Shown one piece after another: positions 1,296 through 31,606 of a stretch of DNA of 44,969 nucleotides (its first letter is position 1; every line of letters begins with the position of its first letter). Under the pieces are notes generated by a model. The model was not told the DNA's origin, did not search any database, and was given only the letters and a program-made list of their open reading frames with translations. The stretch covers positions 1-44,969 of IMG/VR virus record IMGVR_UViG_3300012926_000007; one strand, written 5' to 3'. Made by a program: the position numbers and the translations under genes. The stretch comes from a virus.

Positions 1296-1304
1296 GCTCC
1301 AGCC

Positions 1305-1508
1305 ATGGAGTTGGGCAAGTGGACAAAGTCGAAGAAGTCGAGCGCCAACGGCACCTGCGTGGAAATCCTCAGAGGCTTTGACCATGTGGCAGTGCGCGAC
1401 AGCAAGGATCCTACCGGGTTGTTCCTGACCTTCACTCATCCTGAGTGGCTTGCCTTCACGGAAGGCGTGAAGGCGGGAGAGTTTGACAACGAAGACACGG
1501 TAGGCTAG
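1305..1508 (+). CDS. DUF397-family protein
   Basis: The 67-residue product has the full DUF397 signature: W-x-KSxxS near the N-terminus, then CVEI, then VAVRDSKDP, then LTFTHPEWLAFTEGVKAGEFD. The length is normal for the family. DUF397 proteins are abundant in Streptomyces and related actinomycetes, where they usually sit beside XRE-type helix-turn-helix regulators and have been linked to developmental regulation. No HTH partner is visible next to this copy. Its last codons overlap the -10 element of a promoter that fires into the tRNA region. A phage copy might interfere with a host HTH/DUF397 pair; that is inference. Confidence 0.88.
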   Translation: MELGKWTKSKKSSANGTCVEILRGFDHVAVRDSKDPTGLFLTFTHPEWLAFTEGVKAGEFDNEDTVG

Positions 1509-1511
1509 TAT
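1483..1511 (+). promoter_or_regulatory. Sigma70-type promoter P1 for tRNA/RNA region
   Basis: TTGACA (1483-1488), a 17-bp spacer and TAGTAT (1506-1511). The -10 overlaps the DUF397 stop codon. It points into the tRNA and structured-RNA region. Confidence 0.65.
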
Positions 1512-1550
1512 CGGAACCAGAACGAACGTCAAGCAGTCCGGCCGGCAGAC

Positions 1551-1579
1551 TTGACACCCTCTCCGAAAGATGCTAAGGT
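1551..1579 (+). promoter_or_regulatory. Sigma70-type promoter P2 for tRNA/RNA region
   Basis: TTGACA (1551-1556), a 17-bp spacer and TAAGGT (1574-1579), 68 bp downstream of P1. It ends 60 bases before tRNA-Met. The pair forms a tandem promoter. Confidence 0.7.
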
Positions 1580-1638
1580 GAGGTTAGAACGAAACGAAGG
1601 CAAGCTGTGAACCGCATCCTCATGGCAAGTCTTCGCAA

Positions 1639-1710
1639 TGCCGGGTGGTGGAGAAGTTCCCACGTGGGCCTCATAAGCCCGAGACTCCAGTGCGATTCTG
1701 GACCTGGCCA
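1639..1710 (+). tRNA. tRNA-Met (CAT)
   Basis: A full cloverleaf can be drawn. The acceptor TGCCGGG pairs with CCTGGCC (position 1 mismatched, one G-T). The D-stem is GTGG/CCAC. The anticodon stem TGGGC/GCCCG carries loop CTCATAA (anticodon CAT). The T-stem is TCCAG/CTGGA with loop TGCGATT, and the discriminator is A. The first-pair mismatch is reminiscent of initiator tRNA, but the anticodon stem does not show the exact GGG/CCC initiator pattern. CAT could also be a tRNA-Ile2 read after lysidine modification. CCA is not encoded. Confidence 0.75.
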
Positions 1711-1788
1711 CTAGGACACGCCGGCTCGCTACCGGCTTCTCTGAAGGTAGATTGATCGTCTACTGGGGACAAAGTGTAAGGTTGCACG

Positions 1789-2383
1789 GAGCCATTTAAT
1801 GGCTCAGGATCCAGAGCCAAACTGGATGTCTCACGATGACCGCAGTCATCAACGAAAGGTTCTCTCCTTTCTAGTTCTCGCAATTGCGAGAACGTCACGT
1901 GAGCTGGAAACAGCTCACAGCAGCACAACTAAATACTTCGAACAGGTCGCAATTGAACCGGCTGGCTTGTTCGGAGGCTCTCAGGGATTTATCTGTCACG
2001 GGGGGACCGTGACTCCGGGTGGGACCGGACTGAGAGCGCATGCTTCGAGTAGCCCAATTGGTAGAGGCGACGTTCCCAAAGGACGTATGTTGTTGGTTCG
2101 AATCCAACCTCTTAGCCTAGCTCCGCCGCTGGATGTCTGAGGACACACCGTGCCCCCCTCGGCTCGGACAGAAGGCGGCGGAGCGCTAGACAGTGGTTGC
2201 TACTCAGACTAGCGGTACTGGCTGGTAGTACGGATGAGTGCTCGGGACGCGGTAAGGTATACACCCGGGAGCACACAACACTCCGGAGTCAGCCTAACCA
2301 CATAGATGTAGCTGGTGCGTATGATCACGGATACTTCAAATGGTTGAAATCTATTACTCCGTGGTCGCCTTGAACTCAGCTAC
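1789..2383 (+). ncRNA. Candidate large structured RNA interleaved with a tRNA-like element
   Basis: Nearly every stretch here is a perfect inverted repeat. Hairpins: 1800-1819, 1835-1850 (CGCA loop), 1855-1870, 1874-1893 (20-nt palindrome), 1899-1918 (8 bp, GAAA tetraloop) and 1939-1973. An 8-bp stem, 1977-1984 with 2030-2037, encloses two hairpins (1995-2013 and 2014-2029) as a three-way junction. After the tRNA-like element come a 10-bp stem (2120-2129/2175-2184), then 2184-2214, 2215-2231, 2238-2274, and a nested domain closed by GTAGCTG/CAGCTAC (2308-2314/2377-2383). No credible protein is encoded. Large ornate RNAs beside phage tRNAs (GOLLD, ROOL) are known, but I cannot assign this to either. 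The + strand is inferred from the promoters and tRNAs. Confidence 0.6.
2043..2116 (+). tRNA. tRNA-like element, isotype unresolved
   Basis: The T-arm is excellent (GTTGG, loop TTCGAAT, CCAAC). An anticodon-type stem ACGTT/GACGT encloses loop CCCAAAG. A D-arm (GCCC/AGGC) follows a canonical TA at 2050-2051. The acceptor CTTCGAG/CTCTTAG has two mismatches. Read strictly the anticodon would be CAA (Leu), but position 33 is then C instead of T and there is no long variable arm, so identity and function are doubtful. It lies inside the structured RNA, between its three-way junction and its 10-bp stem, so it may be a tRNA-like domain rather than a free tRNA. Confidence 0.5.
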
Positions 2384-2571
2384 GCTCTTTGACAACAGAA
2401 AAGCTTAAACACCAGGTGCGACAGCCACGGATACTTCCATTACACAAATTGAAAAACCGGTTCGAATCCGGGAGCCCATCGGGGCGACGATGTGACGGCA
2501 ACATCAATTTCCGTAGCTAATTGATCTCTGGTGTATGTTTTGACGTCTGGTGCGCAGACAAAGGATACTTC
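2312..2571 (+). repeat. Three-copy motif C-x-GGTGCG-N8/9-GGATACTTC
   Basis: GGTGCG followed 8 or 9 bases later by GGATACTTC occurs at 2312-2337, about 2413-2437 and 2547-2571. The spacing is nearly fixed. The bases between differ, as do the local pairings: CACGGA/TCCGTG in copy 1, and GTCTG/CAGAC around GTGCG in copy 3. A fourth ATACTTC lies at 1933-1939. The pattern of conserved words with diverged linkers suggests a repeated RNA module or protein-binding motif. Confidence 0.6.
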
Positions 2572-2765
2572 CTCCGTTAAAGGGCAGGTCGCTGGTTCAA
2601 ATCCAGCCCATGCCGGCCGTGAGGCCGGCGAGGTAGCTCAGTCAGGTAGAGCAGCTTGTTTCCTTCGCCGACTTGATCTCAGACGTTATAAGTTCCCTGC
2701 CGTGCTTCGTACAGCAGGGCCGGCCCACCTTAGCTGACTTTCCCTTGGTTGAGGTGGGCCACAAT
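2384..2765 (+). other. Structured spacer with tRNA-like fragments
   Basis: No coding signal. Two T-arm-like elements occur, around 2457-2471 (CCGG, TTCGAAT, CCGG) and 2590-2606 (GCTGG, TTCAAAT, CCAGC), but I could not build full cloverleaves on them. A D-arm-like string begins at 2632 (TAGCTCAGTCAGGTAGAGC) with no matching anticodon or T-arm. Hairpins: ATCAATT/AATTGAT (2502-2508/2518-2524), a GCCGGCC/GGCCGGC stem with GTGA loop just before the D-arm, and GGCCCACCT/AGGTGGGCC (2722-2730/2752-2760) right before tRNA-Ile. These may be decayed or interrupted tRNAs, or further domains of the structured RNA. Confidence 0.4.
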
Positions 2766-2841
2766 GCCCCTTAGCTTATATCTGGTTTAAAGCGCCGGCC
2801 TGATAAACCGGAAAACTAGTGTTCAAATCACTGGAGGGGCC
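2766..2841 (+). tRNA. tRNA-Ile (GAT)
   Basis: The acceptor GCCCCTT pairs with GAGGGGC (7 bp, one G-T). The anticodon loop CTGATAA, classical for isoleucine, lies on stem CCGGC/ACCGG with a C-A mismatch next to the loop. The T-arm is TAGTG, loop TTCAAAT, CACTG, and the D-arm is GCTT/AAGC. The discriminator is C instead of the usual A, and CCA is not encoded. The closing mismatch and one-base connector before the D-stem suggest some decay. Confidence 0.75.
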
Positions 2842-2939
2842 CGGGGAAAGGGATGAGAGGACACCCAAGACTAGTGACAGGTGACGCCCAGCAGGCCGTA
2901 CGCTAGCGGATTTGCTGGTTCCCGCTCTTTCTTTCAAAA

Positions 2940-2963
2940 GCTACAGGGTGGCCACCCTGTAGC
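2940..2963. repeat. 24-bp perfect palindrome before tRNA-Arg
   Basis: GCTACAGGGTGG is followed at once by its exact reverse complement, ending four bases before the tRNA-Arg acceptor. It is preceded by a pyrimidine-rich stretch. It could fold as an RNA processing hairpin or bind a dimeric protein. The rest of 2842-2966 shows no gene. Confidence 0.7.
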
Positions 2964-2966
2964 CAA

Positions 2967-3041
2967 TGCCCTGTAACTCAGCCTGGATAGAGTAACGGCA
3001 TACGAAGCCGGAAGTCGGGGGTTCAAATCCTTCCAGGGCAG
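2967..3041 (+). tRNA. tRNA-Arg (ACG)
   Basis: A complete cloverleaf: acceptor TGCCCTG/CAGGGCA (7 perfect pairs), TA at positions 8-9, D-stem ACTC/GAGT, anticodon stem ACGGC/GCCGG (4 of 5 pairs) with loop ATACGAA, T-arm GGGGG with loop TTCAAAT and CCTTC (two G-T pairs), discriminator G. ACG would be deaminated to ICG by TadA. CCA is not encoded. It is the cleanest tRNA of the cluster. Confidence 0.88.
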
Positions 3042-3083
3042 CGAGAGTTTACGCCCCAGCCACTCTTTCAAAACTTCAGGGGC

Positions 3084-3097
3084 AGTCTGGCCAGACT
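3084..3097. repeat. 14-bp perfect palindrome upstream of small ORFs
   Basis: AGTCTGG followed by CCAGACT, 17 bases upstream of the ATG at 3114. It could be an operator or an RNA hairpin. No convincing -35 accompanies the TATACG just downstream. Confidence 0.5.
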
Positions 3098-3113
3098 ATA
3101 CGCAGGAGAGAGC

Positions 3114-3194
3114 ATGATTGCACGGAAGATTGCGGGACTGCTTCTAGCAGTCGAGATGTACTTAAGGAAGCTGGAACAACGTGACCGATCATGA
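3114..3194 (+). CDS. Small hypothetical protein (26 aa)
   Basis: ATG at 3114 follows a good ribosome binding site (AGGAGAG, about 5 bases). The product starts MIARKIAGLLLAVEMYL and ends in a charged tail, an amphipathic or weakly hydrophobic helix. Short proteins starting MIARKIA occur in other actinophages as I recall, with no known role. It overlaps the next ORF by 14 bases, as expected for coupled small phage genes. Confidence 0.55.
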   Translation: MIARKIAGLLLAVEMYLRKLEQRDRS

Positions 3195-3363
3195 ACTGGT
3201 GCCGGCAGAAGTGGTTAGTGATCTGAACGATTTGTCAGATGTCTCTTTGGCGGACGTAGCCGAAGCCCTGACAGACTGCACCACACCAGATACTGTACGT
3301 CGTGTAGAGTCAACTGATGGCTCTAGGCTTCTGGTGGCTGCTGCGTTCAACTCGGCGATCTGA
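3181..3363 (+). CDS. Small acidic hypothetical protein (60 aa)
   Basis: GTG start at 3181 inside the preceding ORF, with GGAAG roughly 8-10 bases upstream. The 60-residue product is acidic and helical (VSDLNDLSDVSLADVAEAL), with no motif I recognise and no cysteines. It is the last gene before the convergent hairpin at 3752. Confidence 0.55.
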   Translation: MTDHELVPAEVVSDLNDLSDVSLADVAEALTDCTTPDTVRRVESTDGSRLLVAAAFNSAI

Positions 3364-3751
3364 GCAAGCCATAAGGCTTGCGGCCGTCACCCTGAAACGG
3401 GTGACGGTAAAAATGTGCTGGACGTGAACAACCGAAAGGACTCCCACCCCGGAGCGCGTCCAGAACAACGTGTTGGCAGTCCTACCGAGATCGGGATTGC
3501 TGACACAAATAGTCCTCCCCCATTGCCCACTAACAGGGGATATACTCGGTGGGGGAGGACGTCCAAGATGGTTCTGGAGTGATCGCCAGAGAGCGTGTGG
3601 AGATATTCATAGGGCTGCCAGATACAGCGCCCGCTCTGTCCGCGAAGGATCCTAGCTGTAAAGTGACAGAGTAAATCTCGCGACACGTAACTTGTCCAGT
3701 ACTGAGCCCGAGTAAATGTGGCGCGGTAGATCGATCTGGACATGCAGAATG
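3364..3751 (+). other. Gene-free hairpin-rich segment
   Basis: Perfect hairpins follow the ORF stop: 3364-3381 (7 bp, ATAA loop); 3384-3407 (9 bp, TGAAAC loop); CTGGACG/CGTCCAG (about 3419-3465); and an 11-bp stem 3512-3522/3550-3560 closing a 27-nt loop. Weaker stems lie near 3574-3590 and 3612-3632. There is no T-run after the first two, so they are not simple terminators. A minus-strand reading frame of 118 codons exists but has no ribosome site or recognisable product. This may be a second structured RNA or the 3' end of the tRNA transcript. Confidence 0.45.
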
Positions 3752-3775
3752 GCCCCCTCCCGAAAGGGAGGGGGC
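3752..3775. terminator. Terminator-type hairpin between convergent transcripts
   Basis: A 10-bp stem GCCCCCTCCC/GGGAGGGGGC with a GAAA tetraloop, followed on the plus strand by the T-rich TGTTTGTGTTT. It lies between the + strand tRNA/small-gene transcript and the end of the - strand late operon, and could stop both, though the minus side lacks a T-run. Confidence 0.75.
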
Positions 3776-3785
3776 TGTTTGTGTT

Positions 3786-3944
3786 TCAGACGAACTTGGC
3801 GCAGAAGGACACAACTGCCAGGTAGAAGATGGAACAGACGTCCCACGGCCTCGGCAGAAGCATGAAGACCACAGTGGCCAGCGTGATGTTCCCGAGCCAG
3901 GCATAGGCCAGGAACTTGGTTCGTGACGCGGGAAACGCGGCCAT
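3786..3944 (-). CDS. Small membrane protein (52 aa), two TM segments
   Basis: ATG at 3944, 14 bases after the stop of the gene upstream. The product has two hydrophobic stretches, FLAYAWLGNITLATVVFML and a second containing IFYLAVVSFC, separated by LPRPWD, giving a two-span hairpin topology. It is the last gene of the late operon, close to the lysis genes, so it could be a second holin or antiholin; that is inference. The ribosome site is weak. Confidence 0.55.
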   Translation of the reverse strand: MAAFPASRTKFLAYAWLGNITLATVVFMLLPRPWDVCSIFYLAVVSFCAKFV

Positions 3945-3958
3945 GACGGCTGTGGTGC

Positions 3959-4297
3959 CTACAGAAGACCGGCGGTGCTGTTCCCGCCAAACCAGTTGGT
4001 GCCGTCGCAGTAGACATCGAACTTGCCGACCTTGGACGCCGTGATAGCGATACCGGTACCGCCAGCGGTGTTGTTGAGTGTGCCACCGGCAGTCTTCAGA
4101 GTCATCTGGCCGGCATTGCTCACAGTCTGCACGAACACGTACTGACGACCCTTGAGGGTTGCGGAGGCTGCCGGAAGCGTGATCACATAAGCGTTGGTGG
4201 GGTCGTAGAAGAGAACGTAGTCATTTGCAGTGACCGTGTAAGCCGCGACGAGCGTCGCCGCAGTGGTGGTGAAGTTGACATCATCGAAGCCGGACAT
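3959..4297 (-). CDS. Fibre-tip-like structural protein, paralogue of the next gene upstream
   Basis: The 112-residue beta-rich product contains TNAYVITLPAASATLKGR, then Thr/Gly/Asn-rich strands, ending CDGTNWFGGNS. The 'VTLPAA...KGR.Y.F......TL' pattern is common at the C-terminus of phage fibre and receptor-binding proteins. It aligns by eye with the 4309-4635 product (AYTxxxYD, then YAVTLPAL, then N-rich loops ending in a W motif), suggesting tandem duplication. It lies downstream of the lysis cassette at the end of the late operon. Confidence 0.7.
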   Translation of the reverse strand: MSGFDDVNFTTTAATLVAAYTVTANDYVLFYDPTNAYVITLPAASATLKGRQYVFVQTVSNAGQMTLKTAGGTLNNTAGGTGIAITASKVGKFDVYCDGTNWFGGNSTAGLL

Positions 4298-4308: not shown

Positions 4309-4635
4309 TTAGACGGACCCGACAACGAGCCAGGTGCTTGAGATAGACATGAGGGTGACCGAGTGGCCGTTAGTGCCACCCGATGCCAGGGAGAAGTTGG
4401 CCGCGATGTTGTTGATCGTGTCCGAGCCGGCACGGGTAACCGTGATGGCGTTCGCGCCGCCATCTTTGGCGACGAGAACGAGGTGCCCGTTGGGCACGTT
4501 GGCCAGGGCCGGCAGTGTGACTGCGTAAGCAGCACCAGCAGTTGCGATGACTGCCGTGTCGTAGTTGGCCATAGTGTAGGCAGCGGTAACCGCCTTCGAG
4601 GCCTGCGGATTGTCAAGATCAGAGATACCTGCCAC
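4309..4635 (-). CDS. Fibre-tip-like structural protein
   Basis: I chose the GTG at 4635 because AAGGAA lies 6-8 bases upstream and it follows the holin stop directly. The frame stays open further upstream, but that part overlaps the holin gene. The 108-residue product contains AAYAVTLPALANVPNGHLV and TVTRAGSDTINN, beta-strand repeats typical of phage tail-fibre tips and decoration domains. It is similar in plan to the following gene (3959-4297). Confidence 0.7.
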   Translation of the reverse strand: MAGISDLDNPQASKAVTAAYTMANYDTAVIATAGAAYAVTLPALANVPNGHLVLVAKDGGANAITVTRAGSDTINNIAANFSLASGGTNGHSVTLMSISSTWLVVGSV

Positions 4636-9360: not shown

Positions 9361-10257
9361 CTAGAAATCATAGTGCGAAGGACGCGGGTAGCGATCCCTC
9401 AGCTTGCGTGCTTCCTGCTCAAGGCGGTCCTTGTAGAGCGTGCCGAAGTAGCTGGAGATCCTTGAGGCACTGCCAGGCTGAACATACTGCGCGCGCTCGG
9501 AGGCTTCGACGGAACTGATGGCGAGGCGTGACGCCTCGAACTGCACTACCAGCTTCATACAGGCCGAATAGACGATGACATCCTGAGAGGTTGCCGGAAG
9601 TCCGGTGACGCCAGCAAAATCATCAGTGTCGTTGACGAGTTCTGTTGGTTCCTTCTGGTAGGTCACGAAGATCTGCCGGCCAGGAACGATATCGTCGGAG
9701 AGGAACAGCGACTTTCCAGTGGGGAAGTCTGTAGGACTTCCCTGTCCAACGAAGCGCCAGCTACGGCAGAAAGGCCAGACGTGCGAAGGTCCGATCAGCT
9801 GGTTCTGGACACTAATGACTTCTTCGGCATCCGTAGGCAGCGGGTATTCGTAAACCACCGAGATCTTCGGGAAGGAAGTGGTGTTGACTGCCCACAGATC
9901 CGGATAGACAGAGCGTATGGCGTCGTTAATGGCCTGCTTGATCCAGACGTTCGGCCAGGTGACGTTGTTCTCGATGCGCGTATTGGCACCCCAGGCAACG
10001 GGAGTGGTGTTCTGCCAACCTCGGGCGAAAGGATCTACCGTAATGGTGTTGAGCGTCTGATTGACGCTCTTGATGAGAATGAGCTCGCTGTTCCCGATCT
10101 CGGCAACACCGCGCGAAATCTGCGTGGCGTCATTCACAGTCAGCGTGGTGTCCGTGGTGAGGATGGGTGCGGTCAGGTAAGCCCACTGCTGCTGATTCTG
10201 CGAGAAGCCCTGAACAAGCTGCTTGACGCGGTTGACGAGGTCTTGGAGCTGCGGCAT
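9361..10257 (-). CDS. Probable head-tail adaptor / tail tubular protein
   Basis: The 298-residue product begins with a helix (QDLVNRVKQLVQGFSQNQQQW), passes through a small beta domain (TTDTTLTVNDATQIS), then WIKQAINDAIRSVYPDLW, a pattern typical of adaptor proteins that bind below the portal. It ends in a helical basic segment (YKDRLEQEARKLRDRYP). It sits near the structural genes and before the probable nozzle, as in T7- and P22-like phages. The role is inferred from architecture and context. Confidence 0.6.
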   Translation of the reverse strand: MPQLQDLVNRVKQLVQGFSQNQQQWAYLTAPILTTDTTLTVNDATQISRGVAEIGNSELILIKSVNQTLNTITVDPFARGWQNTTPVAWGANTRIENNVTWPNVWIKQAINDAIRSVYPDLWAVNTTSFPKISVVYEYPLPTDAEEVISVQNQLIGPSHVWPFCRSWRFVGQGSPTDFPTGKSLFLSDDIVPGRQIFVTYQKEPTELVNDTDDFAGVTGLPATSQDVIVYSACMKLVVQFEASRLAISSVEASERAQYVQPGSASRISSYFGTLYKDRLEQEARKLRDRYPRPSHYDF

Positions 10258-30232: not shown

Positions 30233-30639
30233 TGTGCACCGTCCAGCAGATAGGGGAAACGCGGGGGGAACTTCTGGTCGGCACCACAAGGGTGCCTGCC
30301 TACTGCCGCAGTGAATCCCTCTACCACCGCGCCACGGTTCGCCGTGGCGCTTCTTACTTCCGTACCTACGGGGCTAGCTCGCCTCAAGCGAGCTTCCTAC
30401 TACTATCGGCAAGGCGTCCCGCCTTGCCTCTAACCGGTAGAGCCGGCCCTCAAGGCCGGCGATCTGACCAGCCAGTGGCGAGCCCTTAGAGGCTCGCCTG
30501 CTAACCGGAGAGACATGAGCGCCGGCCGCTCGACATTCGCTTACGCTCATGTCTCGCTTAGGCGAAGCCTCCCAATATATATAGCCCAACCGTTTTGGGG
30601 TCCCTGGACGCAGGGACCTCCAGTCTTTACCAAATCGTT
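30233..30639. repeat. String of perfect hairpins upstream of the terminase gene
   Basis: Hairpins in a row: 30329-30350 (9 bp, TTCG loop), 30376-30394 (7 bp, CTCAA loop), 30408-30428 (9 bp, TCC loop), 30442-30460 (7 bp, CTCAA loop), 30477-30498 (8 bp), 30510-30520/30545-30555 (11 bp closing a 24-nt insert) and 30599-30618 (8 bp). No gene. The stems are unrelated in sequence, which argues against a dispersed repeat and for conserved structure. If transcribed with the late operon it would be its 5' leader. Confidence 0.6.
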
Positions 30640-30667
30640 ATAATAGAACCAGCCTAAGCTGGTTCAA
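30640..30667 (-). promoter_or_regulatory. Possible late-operon promoter
   Basis: Minus strand: TTGAAC (30667-30662), a 16-bp spacer and TATTAT (30645-30640). It overlaps the GAACCAGC-CTAA-GCTGGTTC hairpin (30646-30665). It reads toward terminase about 400 bases away. The match is moderate. Confidence 0.4.
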
Positions 30668-31606
30668 ACCTGGACACTATGGCTCCGGGAGTCCATCTAG
30701 AAGTTCCCCGCGCATCGGCCAGATCTGGCCCCCGTTTTCTAGCCGTGCGCCGGAGACGGCGCACCTTCCGGACTTCAGCAGAGCTGAATTCCTAGGAAAA
30801 TTTTCTTGGTGTGTAGCACCACACCACACGCGCCGGCTTTAACATCCCCCGGTTGACGATCATGAGCCAAGCAAGATCATCCACATTCTGAGACAAACGA
30901 TCATGCAAAAGCGCAGGTCAAGCCATATCAGCTAGTTGATAGACTGATCGTTCTACTGTTGGGCAGCCATGATCATCGATCATGGGCCGGCTCATGATCA
31001 TCAGGCCCTGACCAGGGCCAACGCCTCCGCATAATGCACGTTATGCGGATTACCAAGATCAACGATCTTGGTGTGCTGCCCTTTCCGCGCGTATGCGCGC
31101 GTTGCCGGCTGATCTTGGCCCTTAAAGACGCTCGATCACGCGTTTGGATCAACTTGCAGGAACAAGAGATCATGTGTGACCAGCTAAGTTACTGATCAGT
31201 AATATGATGGTGTGTCAGATGAAAATGATTATCATTAGCATTAGATGACGTCCAGATGATCACATCTATGCGCGCACGCATGACGTGCGCCTGAGCACAA
31301 CCCTTGGCGCGCCCGTTGGGGCGCGTGAGAAGCCTCAGGATCCATGTGTTGATACTAAAGTGCCTGCAAATTGGCTATAGACAGCATCATCGGTCCTGAG
31401 TAGTGTTCTGGTTGTAGGGAAGAGGGAAACCCGCCAGGGGATACAGCATCTAGGTGCTGGTGCAGCAGCTCTGGACAGGTCCTGTGGATACCGGAACTCC
31501 AAGGCAACCGGGAACGCTCTTAAGGTCTATGAGAGTGGCAGGCACACTGTGTGTGTTGCTCTGAGCGTTCGGCCGGCCAGGCCGAACGTTGATCCGAGGA
31601 GTGAGC
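30668..31606. repeat. Palindrome- and GATC-rich gene-free region, candidate origin
   Basis: No gene in over 900 bases. Perfect dyads at 30745-30764, 30967-30985 (CCATGATC-atc-GATCATGG), 31004-31019, 31027-31048 (CCGCATAA stem), 31053-31071 (CCAAGATC-aac-GATCTTGG), 31086-31101 (CGCGCG-TATG), 31189-31202, 31224-31236, 31272-31290 and 31308-31325. More than a dozen GATC sites fall between 30858 and 31262. Two dyads share the plan GATC-3-GATC. Such fields mark replication origins, partition or repressor arrays, or structured RNA. It separates the late (-) and early (+) transcription units. Confidence 0.6.
31566..31588 (+). promoter_or_regulatory. Leader hairpin of first early + gene
   Basis: A 9-bp stem CGTTCGGCC/GGCCGAACG with GGCCA loop, 18 bases before the start codon at 31607 and close to its GAGGAG ribosome site. 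Comparable hairpins lie before the next three genes (31975-31993, 32347-32365 and 32376-32396, 32788-32805). They may stabilise mRNA or control translation. Confidence 0.5.

What the first reader, a model, noticed from the sequence alone, without database searches (positions are those of the whole stretch)
1789..2383. A roughly 600-nt multi-helix RNA built around a tRNA-like element
At least ten perfect stems, several with GAAA or CGCA tetraloops, plus a three-way junction (8-bp stem 1977-1984/2030-2037 enclosing two hairpins) and a 10-bp stem 2120-2129/2175-2184, fill a stretch without proteins downstream of two strong promoters. A tRNA-like element sits in the middle. Phage tRNA clusters are known homes of very large ornate RNAs (GOLLD, ROOL), so this may be a new or divergent member, or an unrelated RNA carried in virions or acting on tRNA.
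Basis: partly seen in the sequence, partly recalled or inferred. Interest (0 to 1): 0.85.

Follow-up and report, generated by a model that had tools for sequence, protein, structure and literature searches.

The report
Phage tRNA-and-Y-RNA operon, not one RNA
The stretch read as one giant structured RNA is part of a virus's small-RNA operon, in which worn-down tRNA-like elements and spacer hairpins sit next to three Y RNAs, RNAs that normally partner the Ro60 protein but here appear in a virus that does not encode Ro60.

Summary
The helices are real and beyond chance: seven perfect hairpins against 0.9 +/- 0.9 in shuffles. They are not one 600-nt RNA. The interval cuts through two independent elements with homologs elsewhere. 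Its 5' end lies inside a tRNA-like element (1710-1836; covariance model from relatives, E=2.5e-11, compensatory changes). Its 3' end lies inside a Y RNA (2306-2386). A model built from actinobacterial and phage Y RNAs, window excluded, finds this one (E=2e-8) and two more downstream. In 93 loci elsewhere such modules sit a median 32 bp from a Ro60 (TROVE) gene, always on its strand. The window is a near-complete phage genome without TROVE, so its Y RNAs are orphans. The three-way junction keeps the acceptor stem of a tRNA at that place in relatives; the 'tRNA-Leu' lacks U33. Relatives fill this locus with up to 22 tRNAs. GOLLD and ROOL give no hit at E<=5. Best reading: an operon of tRNAs, degenerate tRNA-like elements, spacer hairpins, and Y RNAs that would engage the host's Ro60/PNPase. 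Binding and function are inferred. The four-hairpin chain 1835-1918 has no homolog and remains unexplained.

The parts
1483..1511 (+). sigma-70-type promoter of the operon (TTGACA-17-TAGTAT); a second perfect -35 (TTGACA) at 1551
   Evidence: consensus scan; second site read directly
1639..1711 (+). tRNA-Met (CAU), first tRNA of the operon; first base pair mismatched and three G-C pairs in the anticodon stem, as in initiator tRNAs
   Evidence: ARAGORN; cmscan 42.5 bits; found at the same place in most relatives
1710..1836 (+). derived copy of a clade-specific tRNA-like element: two leader hairpins, a 5-bp acceptor GGGAC/GTCTC closing three hairpins; the T-arm of the relatives' version is lost and replaced
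   Evidence: covariance model R2 from six relatives, E=2.5e-11; 104/104 pair cells intact, 10 of 18 pairs with double changes (acceptor halves joined by hand)
1835..1918 (+). chain of four perfect hairpins (CGCA, TTCTCT, AATT and GAAA loops); no homolog found
   Evidence: z=-6.5 for 1836-1920; searches find no relative
1935..1976 (+). single imperfect hairpin between the chain and the three-way junction
   Evidence: z=-3.4 for 1918-1976
   Evidence: z=-4.1
2043..2117 (+). tRNA-like element called tRNA-Leu(CAA); two acceptor mismatches, C at position 33 and no long variable arm, so probably not a working tRNA-Leu
   Evidence: loop read directly
2118..2190 (+). long imperfect hairpin containing the 10-bp stem 2120-2129/2175-2184
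   Evidence: z=-3.4
2192..2301 (+). weakly structured stretch between the hairpin and the first Y RNA
   Evidence: z=-1.5
2306..2386 (+). Y RNA 1 (short type, no tRNA-like domain)
   Evidence: model R1, window excluded from training: 46.9 bits, E=2e-8; z=-3.6
2406..2537 (+). Y RNA 2, with a permuted T-arm/acceptor-like insert
   Evidence: R1: 25.4 bits, E=5.6e-5 over 2414-2529 in a local unfiltered search; not reported in the whole-window search; closing stem ACACCAG/CTGGTGT
2541..2689 (+). Y RNA 3, with a permuted tRNA domain (T-arm, fused acceptor, D-arm) as in YrlA
   Evidence: R1: 48.8 bits, E=7.2e-9; Rfam YrlA 32.6 bits, E=1.4e-4, below the curated cut-off 69
2695..2760 (+). two spacer hairpins
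   Evidence: z=-6.1
2766..2841 (+). tRNA with GAU anticodon
   Evidence: cmscan 38.6 bits
2967..3042 (+). tRNA-Arg (ACG)
3363..3580 (+). second hairpin chain inside the same operon
   Evidence: z about -5 to -6
3752..3775 (+). terminator hairpin with T-rich tail, end of the operon
   Evidence: 22 identical bases at the corresponding place in L004

Best explanation
The interval is part of a roughly 2.2-kb polycistronic small-RNA operon (promoter about 1483, terminator about 3775) of a near-complete actinobacteriophage-like genome, not one RNA. It carries a few real tRNAs, tRNA-like elements that have lost the tRNA loops but keep the stems, spacer hairpins, and a tandem array of three Y RNAs. 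Likely working: one precursor is transcribed and cut at the tRNA and tRNA-like stems; the spacer hairpins protect or direct the cuts; the released Y RNAs bind the host's Ro60 protein (Rsr) by their conserved bulged stem, and the tRNA-like domain of Y RNA 3 (perhaps also 2) contacts PNPase, so the phage supplies Y RNAs to a host machine. Shown: the elements, their conserved structures, absence of a TROVE gene. Inferred: processing, Ro60 and PNPase binding, benefit to the phage.
For: R1, trained without the window or L004, finds all three Y RNAs and three more in L004, the only other relative with them. In the 93 loci where such a module and a TROVE ORF both lie in the fetched stretch, they are on the same strand in all 93, at a median distance of 32 bp, and 13 of 16 tested actinobacterial genomes that gave pattern hits encode TROVE. 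R1 covariation is strong. The window and L004 records have no TROVE; the window's polA is split over its two ends with about 22 residues missing, so the genome is near complete. Model R2 places 1710-1836 in a tRNA-like family of this clade. The same locus in relatives holds up to 22 tRNAs with hairpin spacers, many of z -3 to -6. Bacterial Y RNAs tether Rsr to PNPase and carry a tRNA-like domain (PMC8394870, PMC4726728).
Against: No transcript data. Y RNA 2 is weak (25 bits). No Y module reaches Rfam's YrlA cut-off; but neither did TROVE-adjacent modules in the loci scanned, so this is a limit of that model. The host is unknown and may lack Rsr. The hairpin chain 1835-1918 has no homolog, so its assignment as spacer is by analogy. 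About 27 of 227 expected pairs in the folded 1700-2400 stretch span more than 160 nt, so long-range contacts are not excluded.
Confidence: 0.78

Rival explanations
1. A single large ornate RNA of about 600 nt, a new kind or a very divergent GOLLD/ROOL, that happens to end in a Y-RNA-like hairpin.
For: Whole-stretch z=-4.8, tRNA-cluster location, no close homolog for 1836-1976 to show separate units. GOLLD and ROOL are encoded near tRNA islands and GOLLD linkers can hold tRNAs (PMC12286853).
Against: No GOLLD or ROOL hit at E<=5. The edges cut through elements with separate homologs. In L170, L180 and L421 the tRNA-like element is followed by an ordinary tRNA and other spacers. Most of the predicted pairing is local.
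Confidence: 0.08
2. Neutral decay: a former tRNA array turning into pseudogenes, the hairpins being leftovers without function (this could be true of parts of the operon alongside working Y RNAs).
For: Several relatives carry 12-22 tRNAs here, the window three or four recognisable ones. The three-way junction keeps only an acceptor stem in common with L180/L421; the 'tRNA-Leu' has a C at position 33.
Against: Stems persist through compensatory changes, including C-G for G-C in the window's own acceptor. The hairpin chain has z=-6.5, where decay should give ordinary sequence. The Y RNAs are intact.
Confidence: 0.25
3. tRNA-shaped decoys: cloverleaf-like elements and Y RNAs occupy host tRNA-cutting or RNA-decay enzymes during infection, while the real tRNAs replace cut host tRNAs.
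For: Two elements keep cloverleaf-like shape without tRNA loops; other RNAs of the operon carry T-arm or D-arm mimics. A tRNA-like Y RNA domain has been proposed as a competitive inhibitor of an anticodon nuclease (PMC7790460).
Against: No target enzyme is known; the loops that most such enzymes recognise are lost in the two cloverleaf-like elements.
Confidence: 0.12

Closest known systems
Bacterial Y RNAs (DrY RNA, YrlA; Rfam RF02553) with Ro60/Rsr
   Same: Basal stem with conserved bulged motif (GGUGCG / CUUGAUCUC), tandem copies; one copy with a permuted tRNA-like domain; same module as the Y RNAs next to TROVE genes in actinobacteria and phages
   Different: No TROVE gene in this phage genome; embedded in a tRNA cluster; below Rfam's YrlA cut-off
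GOLLD and ROOL RNAs
   Same: Phage tRNA cluster, many helices, tRNA-like parts within
   Different: No covariance-model hit at E<=5; composite of separate short elements, mostly local helices
Phage tRNA arrays
   Same: Polycistronic tRNAs downstream of polA, tRNA-Met early in the array, hairpin spacers
   Different: Few intact tRNAs; much of the array replaced by tRNA-like elements, hairpins and Y RNAs
Y RNAs of mycobacteriophages and other phages (Chen et al. 2014, cited in PMC12282133)
   Same: Phage-encoded Y RNAs
   Different: Those are encoded near Ro60, as I recall the abstract (the paper is not held); here there is no Ro60 gene

Membership tests
Bacterial Y RNA | Conserved bulged basal stem formed by the 5' and 3' ends (Ro60/Rsr site) | tested here: met
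   R1 model hits E=2e-8, 7.2e-9 and 5.6e-5; stem covariation in the family
Bacterial Y RNA | tRNA-like domain (D, T and acceptor arms) in at least one copy | tested here: met
   Y RNA 3: YrlA match over model positions 24-84, 32.6 bits, E=1.4e-4, although below the family cut-off 69
Bacterial Y RNA | Encoded with a Ro60/TROVE gene | tested here: not met
   No TROVE in the window record, which is near complete; the same module elsewhere lies beside TROVE (93 loci). This is an association and not a structural criterion, so the modules are filed as orphan Y RNAs
Bacterial Y RNA | Binding to Rsr and PNPase | not testable with these tools
   needs biochemistry
GOLLD (Rfam) | Match to the family covariance model | tested here: not met
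   no hit at E<=5 on 1300-4000, none at gathering score in the whole window
ROOL (Rfam) | Match to the family covariance model | tested here: not met
tRNA (elements 1710-1836 and 1977-2037) | D-loop, anticodon-loop and T-loop consensus | tested here: not met
   no ARAGORN or Rfam tRNA hit; cloverleaf-like shape only
tRNA-Leu (2043-2117) | U33 and long variable arm | tested here: not met
   loop CCCAAAG, short variable region, read; generic tRNA score 36.4 bits

The most novel reading that the evidence does not exclude
A phage lineage has turned its tRNA array into a set of tRNA-shaped and Ro60-binding RNAs: orphan Y RNAs that take over the host's Ro60/PNPase machine, plus cloverleaf-shaped decoys and hairpins that block tRNA-cutting or RNA-decay enzymes.
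Probability: 0.12. Interest if true: 0.8.

Novelty: new variant of a known kind. Interest (0 to 1): 0.5.

Why it matters
Y RNAs are usually found beside their Ro60 gene. A near-complete phage genome with three Y RNAs and no Ro60, inside a tRNA array, suggests that phages use the host's Ro60/PNPase machine, which gives a direct test of what bacterial Y RNAs do. It also defines a clade-specific tRNA-like element absent from Rfam, and warns that hairpin-rich tRNA clusters can be mistaken for giant RNAs.

Tried and rejected
GOLLD, ROOL and other Rfam families: only tRNA above cut-offs; the relatives' tRNA-like element scores weakly as tRNA-Sec (20.9 bits against 47). DNA similarity of the cluster in 50,697 phage records: only a tRNA-Arg match in Listeria phages. 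Homologs of the hairpin chain in relatives found through polA and the lysozyme-like gene: none. TROVE or divergent TROVE in the window: none by profile or by tblastn of actinobacterial TROVE proteins (best E 0.048). Pfam and PHROGs on a selection of ORFs: terminase, portal-like, NlpC/P60, DnaB-like, Toprim, PD-(D/E)XK nuclease, RNase H-like and sigma region 4 matches, no Ro60 or RNA ligase among the ORFs scanned. Orphan status elsewhere: of 23 Y-module records without TROVE in the fetched stretch, 12 have it elsewhere in the record and 11 do not, but many of those may be fragments.

Full report
Observation. The stems described are present at the stated coordinates. Seven perfect hairpins of at least 6 bp lie in 1789-2383, against 0.92 +/- 0.86 in dinucleotide shuffles. 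The stretch 1740-2400 folds with z=-4.8, most strongly in the chain 1836-1920 (z=-6.5) and in the three-way junction (z=-4.1). Other spacers of the same operon are as rich in hairpins (2695-2765 z=-6.1; 3355-3580 z about -5).

Setting. The window is a virus record of 44,969 bases. Its polA is split between the two ends, with about 22 residues missing, so the genome is near complete. Relatives by polA (62-79% identity) carry, at the same place, tRNA-Met followed in several of them by up to 21 further tRNAs and hairpin spacers. The window, L004, L170 and L180 keep few. A promoter at 1483 and a terminator hairpin at 3752-3775 bracket the cluster.

Element 1710-1836. The sequence after tRNA-Met is homologous to an element of relatives L165, L168-L170, L180, L193 and L421: two leader hairpins, an acceptor-like stem, an invariant GTGACAAGTTCGGAACTAGG and a tRNA T-arm. 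A model from six relatives finds the window copy at E=2.5e-11. In the trimmed alignment every pair is kept (104/104 cells), and 10 of 18 pairs have double changes; the acceptor halves were joined by hand there, which leans towards the structure. The window copy has lost the invariant motif and the T-arm. The motif occurs in nine viral contigs, all of this clade. Rfam has no such family.

Middle. The hairpins 1835-1918 have no relative in any search. The three-way junction 1977-2037 has the acceptor CTCTCAG/CTGAGAG of the tRNA that follows the tRNA-like element in L180 and L421, but without tRNA loops. The 'tRNA-Leu' 2043-2117 has two acceptor mismatches, a C at position 33 and no long variable arm (read).

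Y RNAs. At 2306 begins the first of three modules with a covarying basal stem around GGUGCG...CUUGAUCUC. A model from 25 modules, none from the window or L004, finds two at E=2e-8 and 7e-9 and, in a local unfiltered search, the third at 5.6e-5. It finds three in L004 and none in the other relatives searched. In actinobacterial chromosomes and many viral contigs the same modules lie in short arrays, and wherever a TROVE ORF is in the fetched stretch (93 loci) it is on the same strand, at a median distance of 32 bp. That identifies the modules as Y RNAs. The third module holds a permuted tRNA domain as in YrlA. The window record lacks TROVE, so these are orphan Y RNAs. Phage Y RNAs as such are known (Chen et al. 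2014, cited in PMC12282133); the paper itself was not held.

Mechanism. From the literature, Y RNA tethers Rsr to PNPase through the basal stem and the tRNA-like domain (PMC8394870; PMC4726728). The simplest use by a phage without Rsr is to engage the host's Rsr. This is inference; the host is unknown.

Verdict. A composite small-RNA operon, not a single RNA. The Y RNA part is a new variant of a known kind (orphan, in a tRNA array); the tRNA-like element is an undescribed clade-specific family as far as Rfam shows; the four-hairpin chain remains unexplained.

Noticed in passing
window 30329-31110: A second chain of ten or more perfect hairpins with short linkers in the noncoding stretch beside the 5' end of the terminase gene; the record of relative L004 has a similarly dense stretch at its positions 2201-3600.
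   Followed up: partly
L004 about 10032-10135; L165 about 4482-4573; L170 2640-2840; also L178 and L180 after the tRNA array: Small Cys/His-rich peptides (CxCxxC...HC...CH) encoded inside or just after the tRNA arrays of relatives.
   Followed up: no
L170 2132-2196, L178 11502-11587, L193 about 9925-10009: Another conserved spacer RNA, CACYCTGTTGAAAAG...CAAAAATAAGGAACAG, between tRNAs of relatives; absent from the window.
   Followed up: partly
L180 9460-9620, L178 9533-9720, L172 about 9309, L421 (- strand, about 8260): Conserved element ACCTGCTAGAGCGAC...GGTAGGCTCTG near the start of the cluster in relatives.
   Followed up: partly
L165, L168 and L169, tRNA-like element: L169 joins the 5' half of L168's element to the 3' half of L165's, a sign of recombination inside the cluster.
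   Followed up: no
viral records G019 (L317), G025 (L354), G027 (L376), G028 (L378), G034 (L401), G038 (L129): Other viral records of 35-64 kb with Y modules and no TROVE hit; orphan phage Y RNAs may be more common, though these may be fragments.
   Followed up: partly
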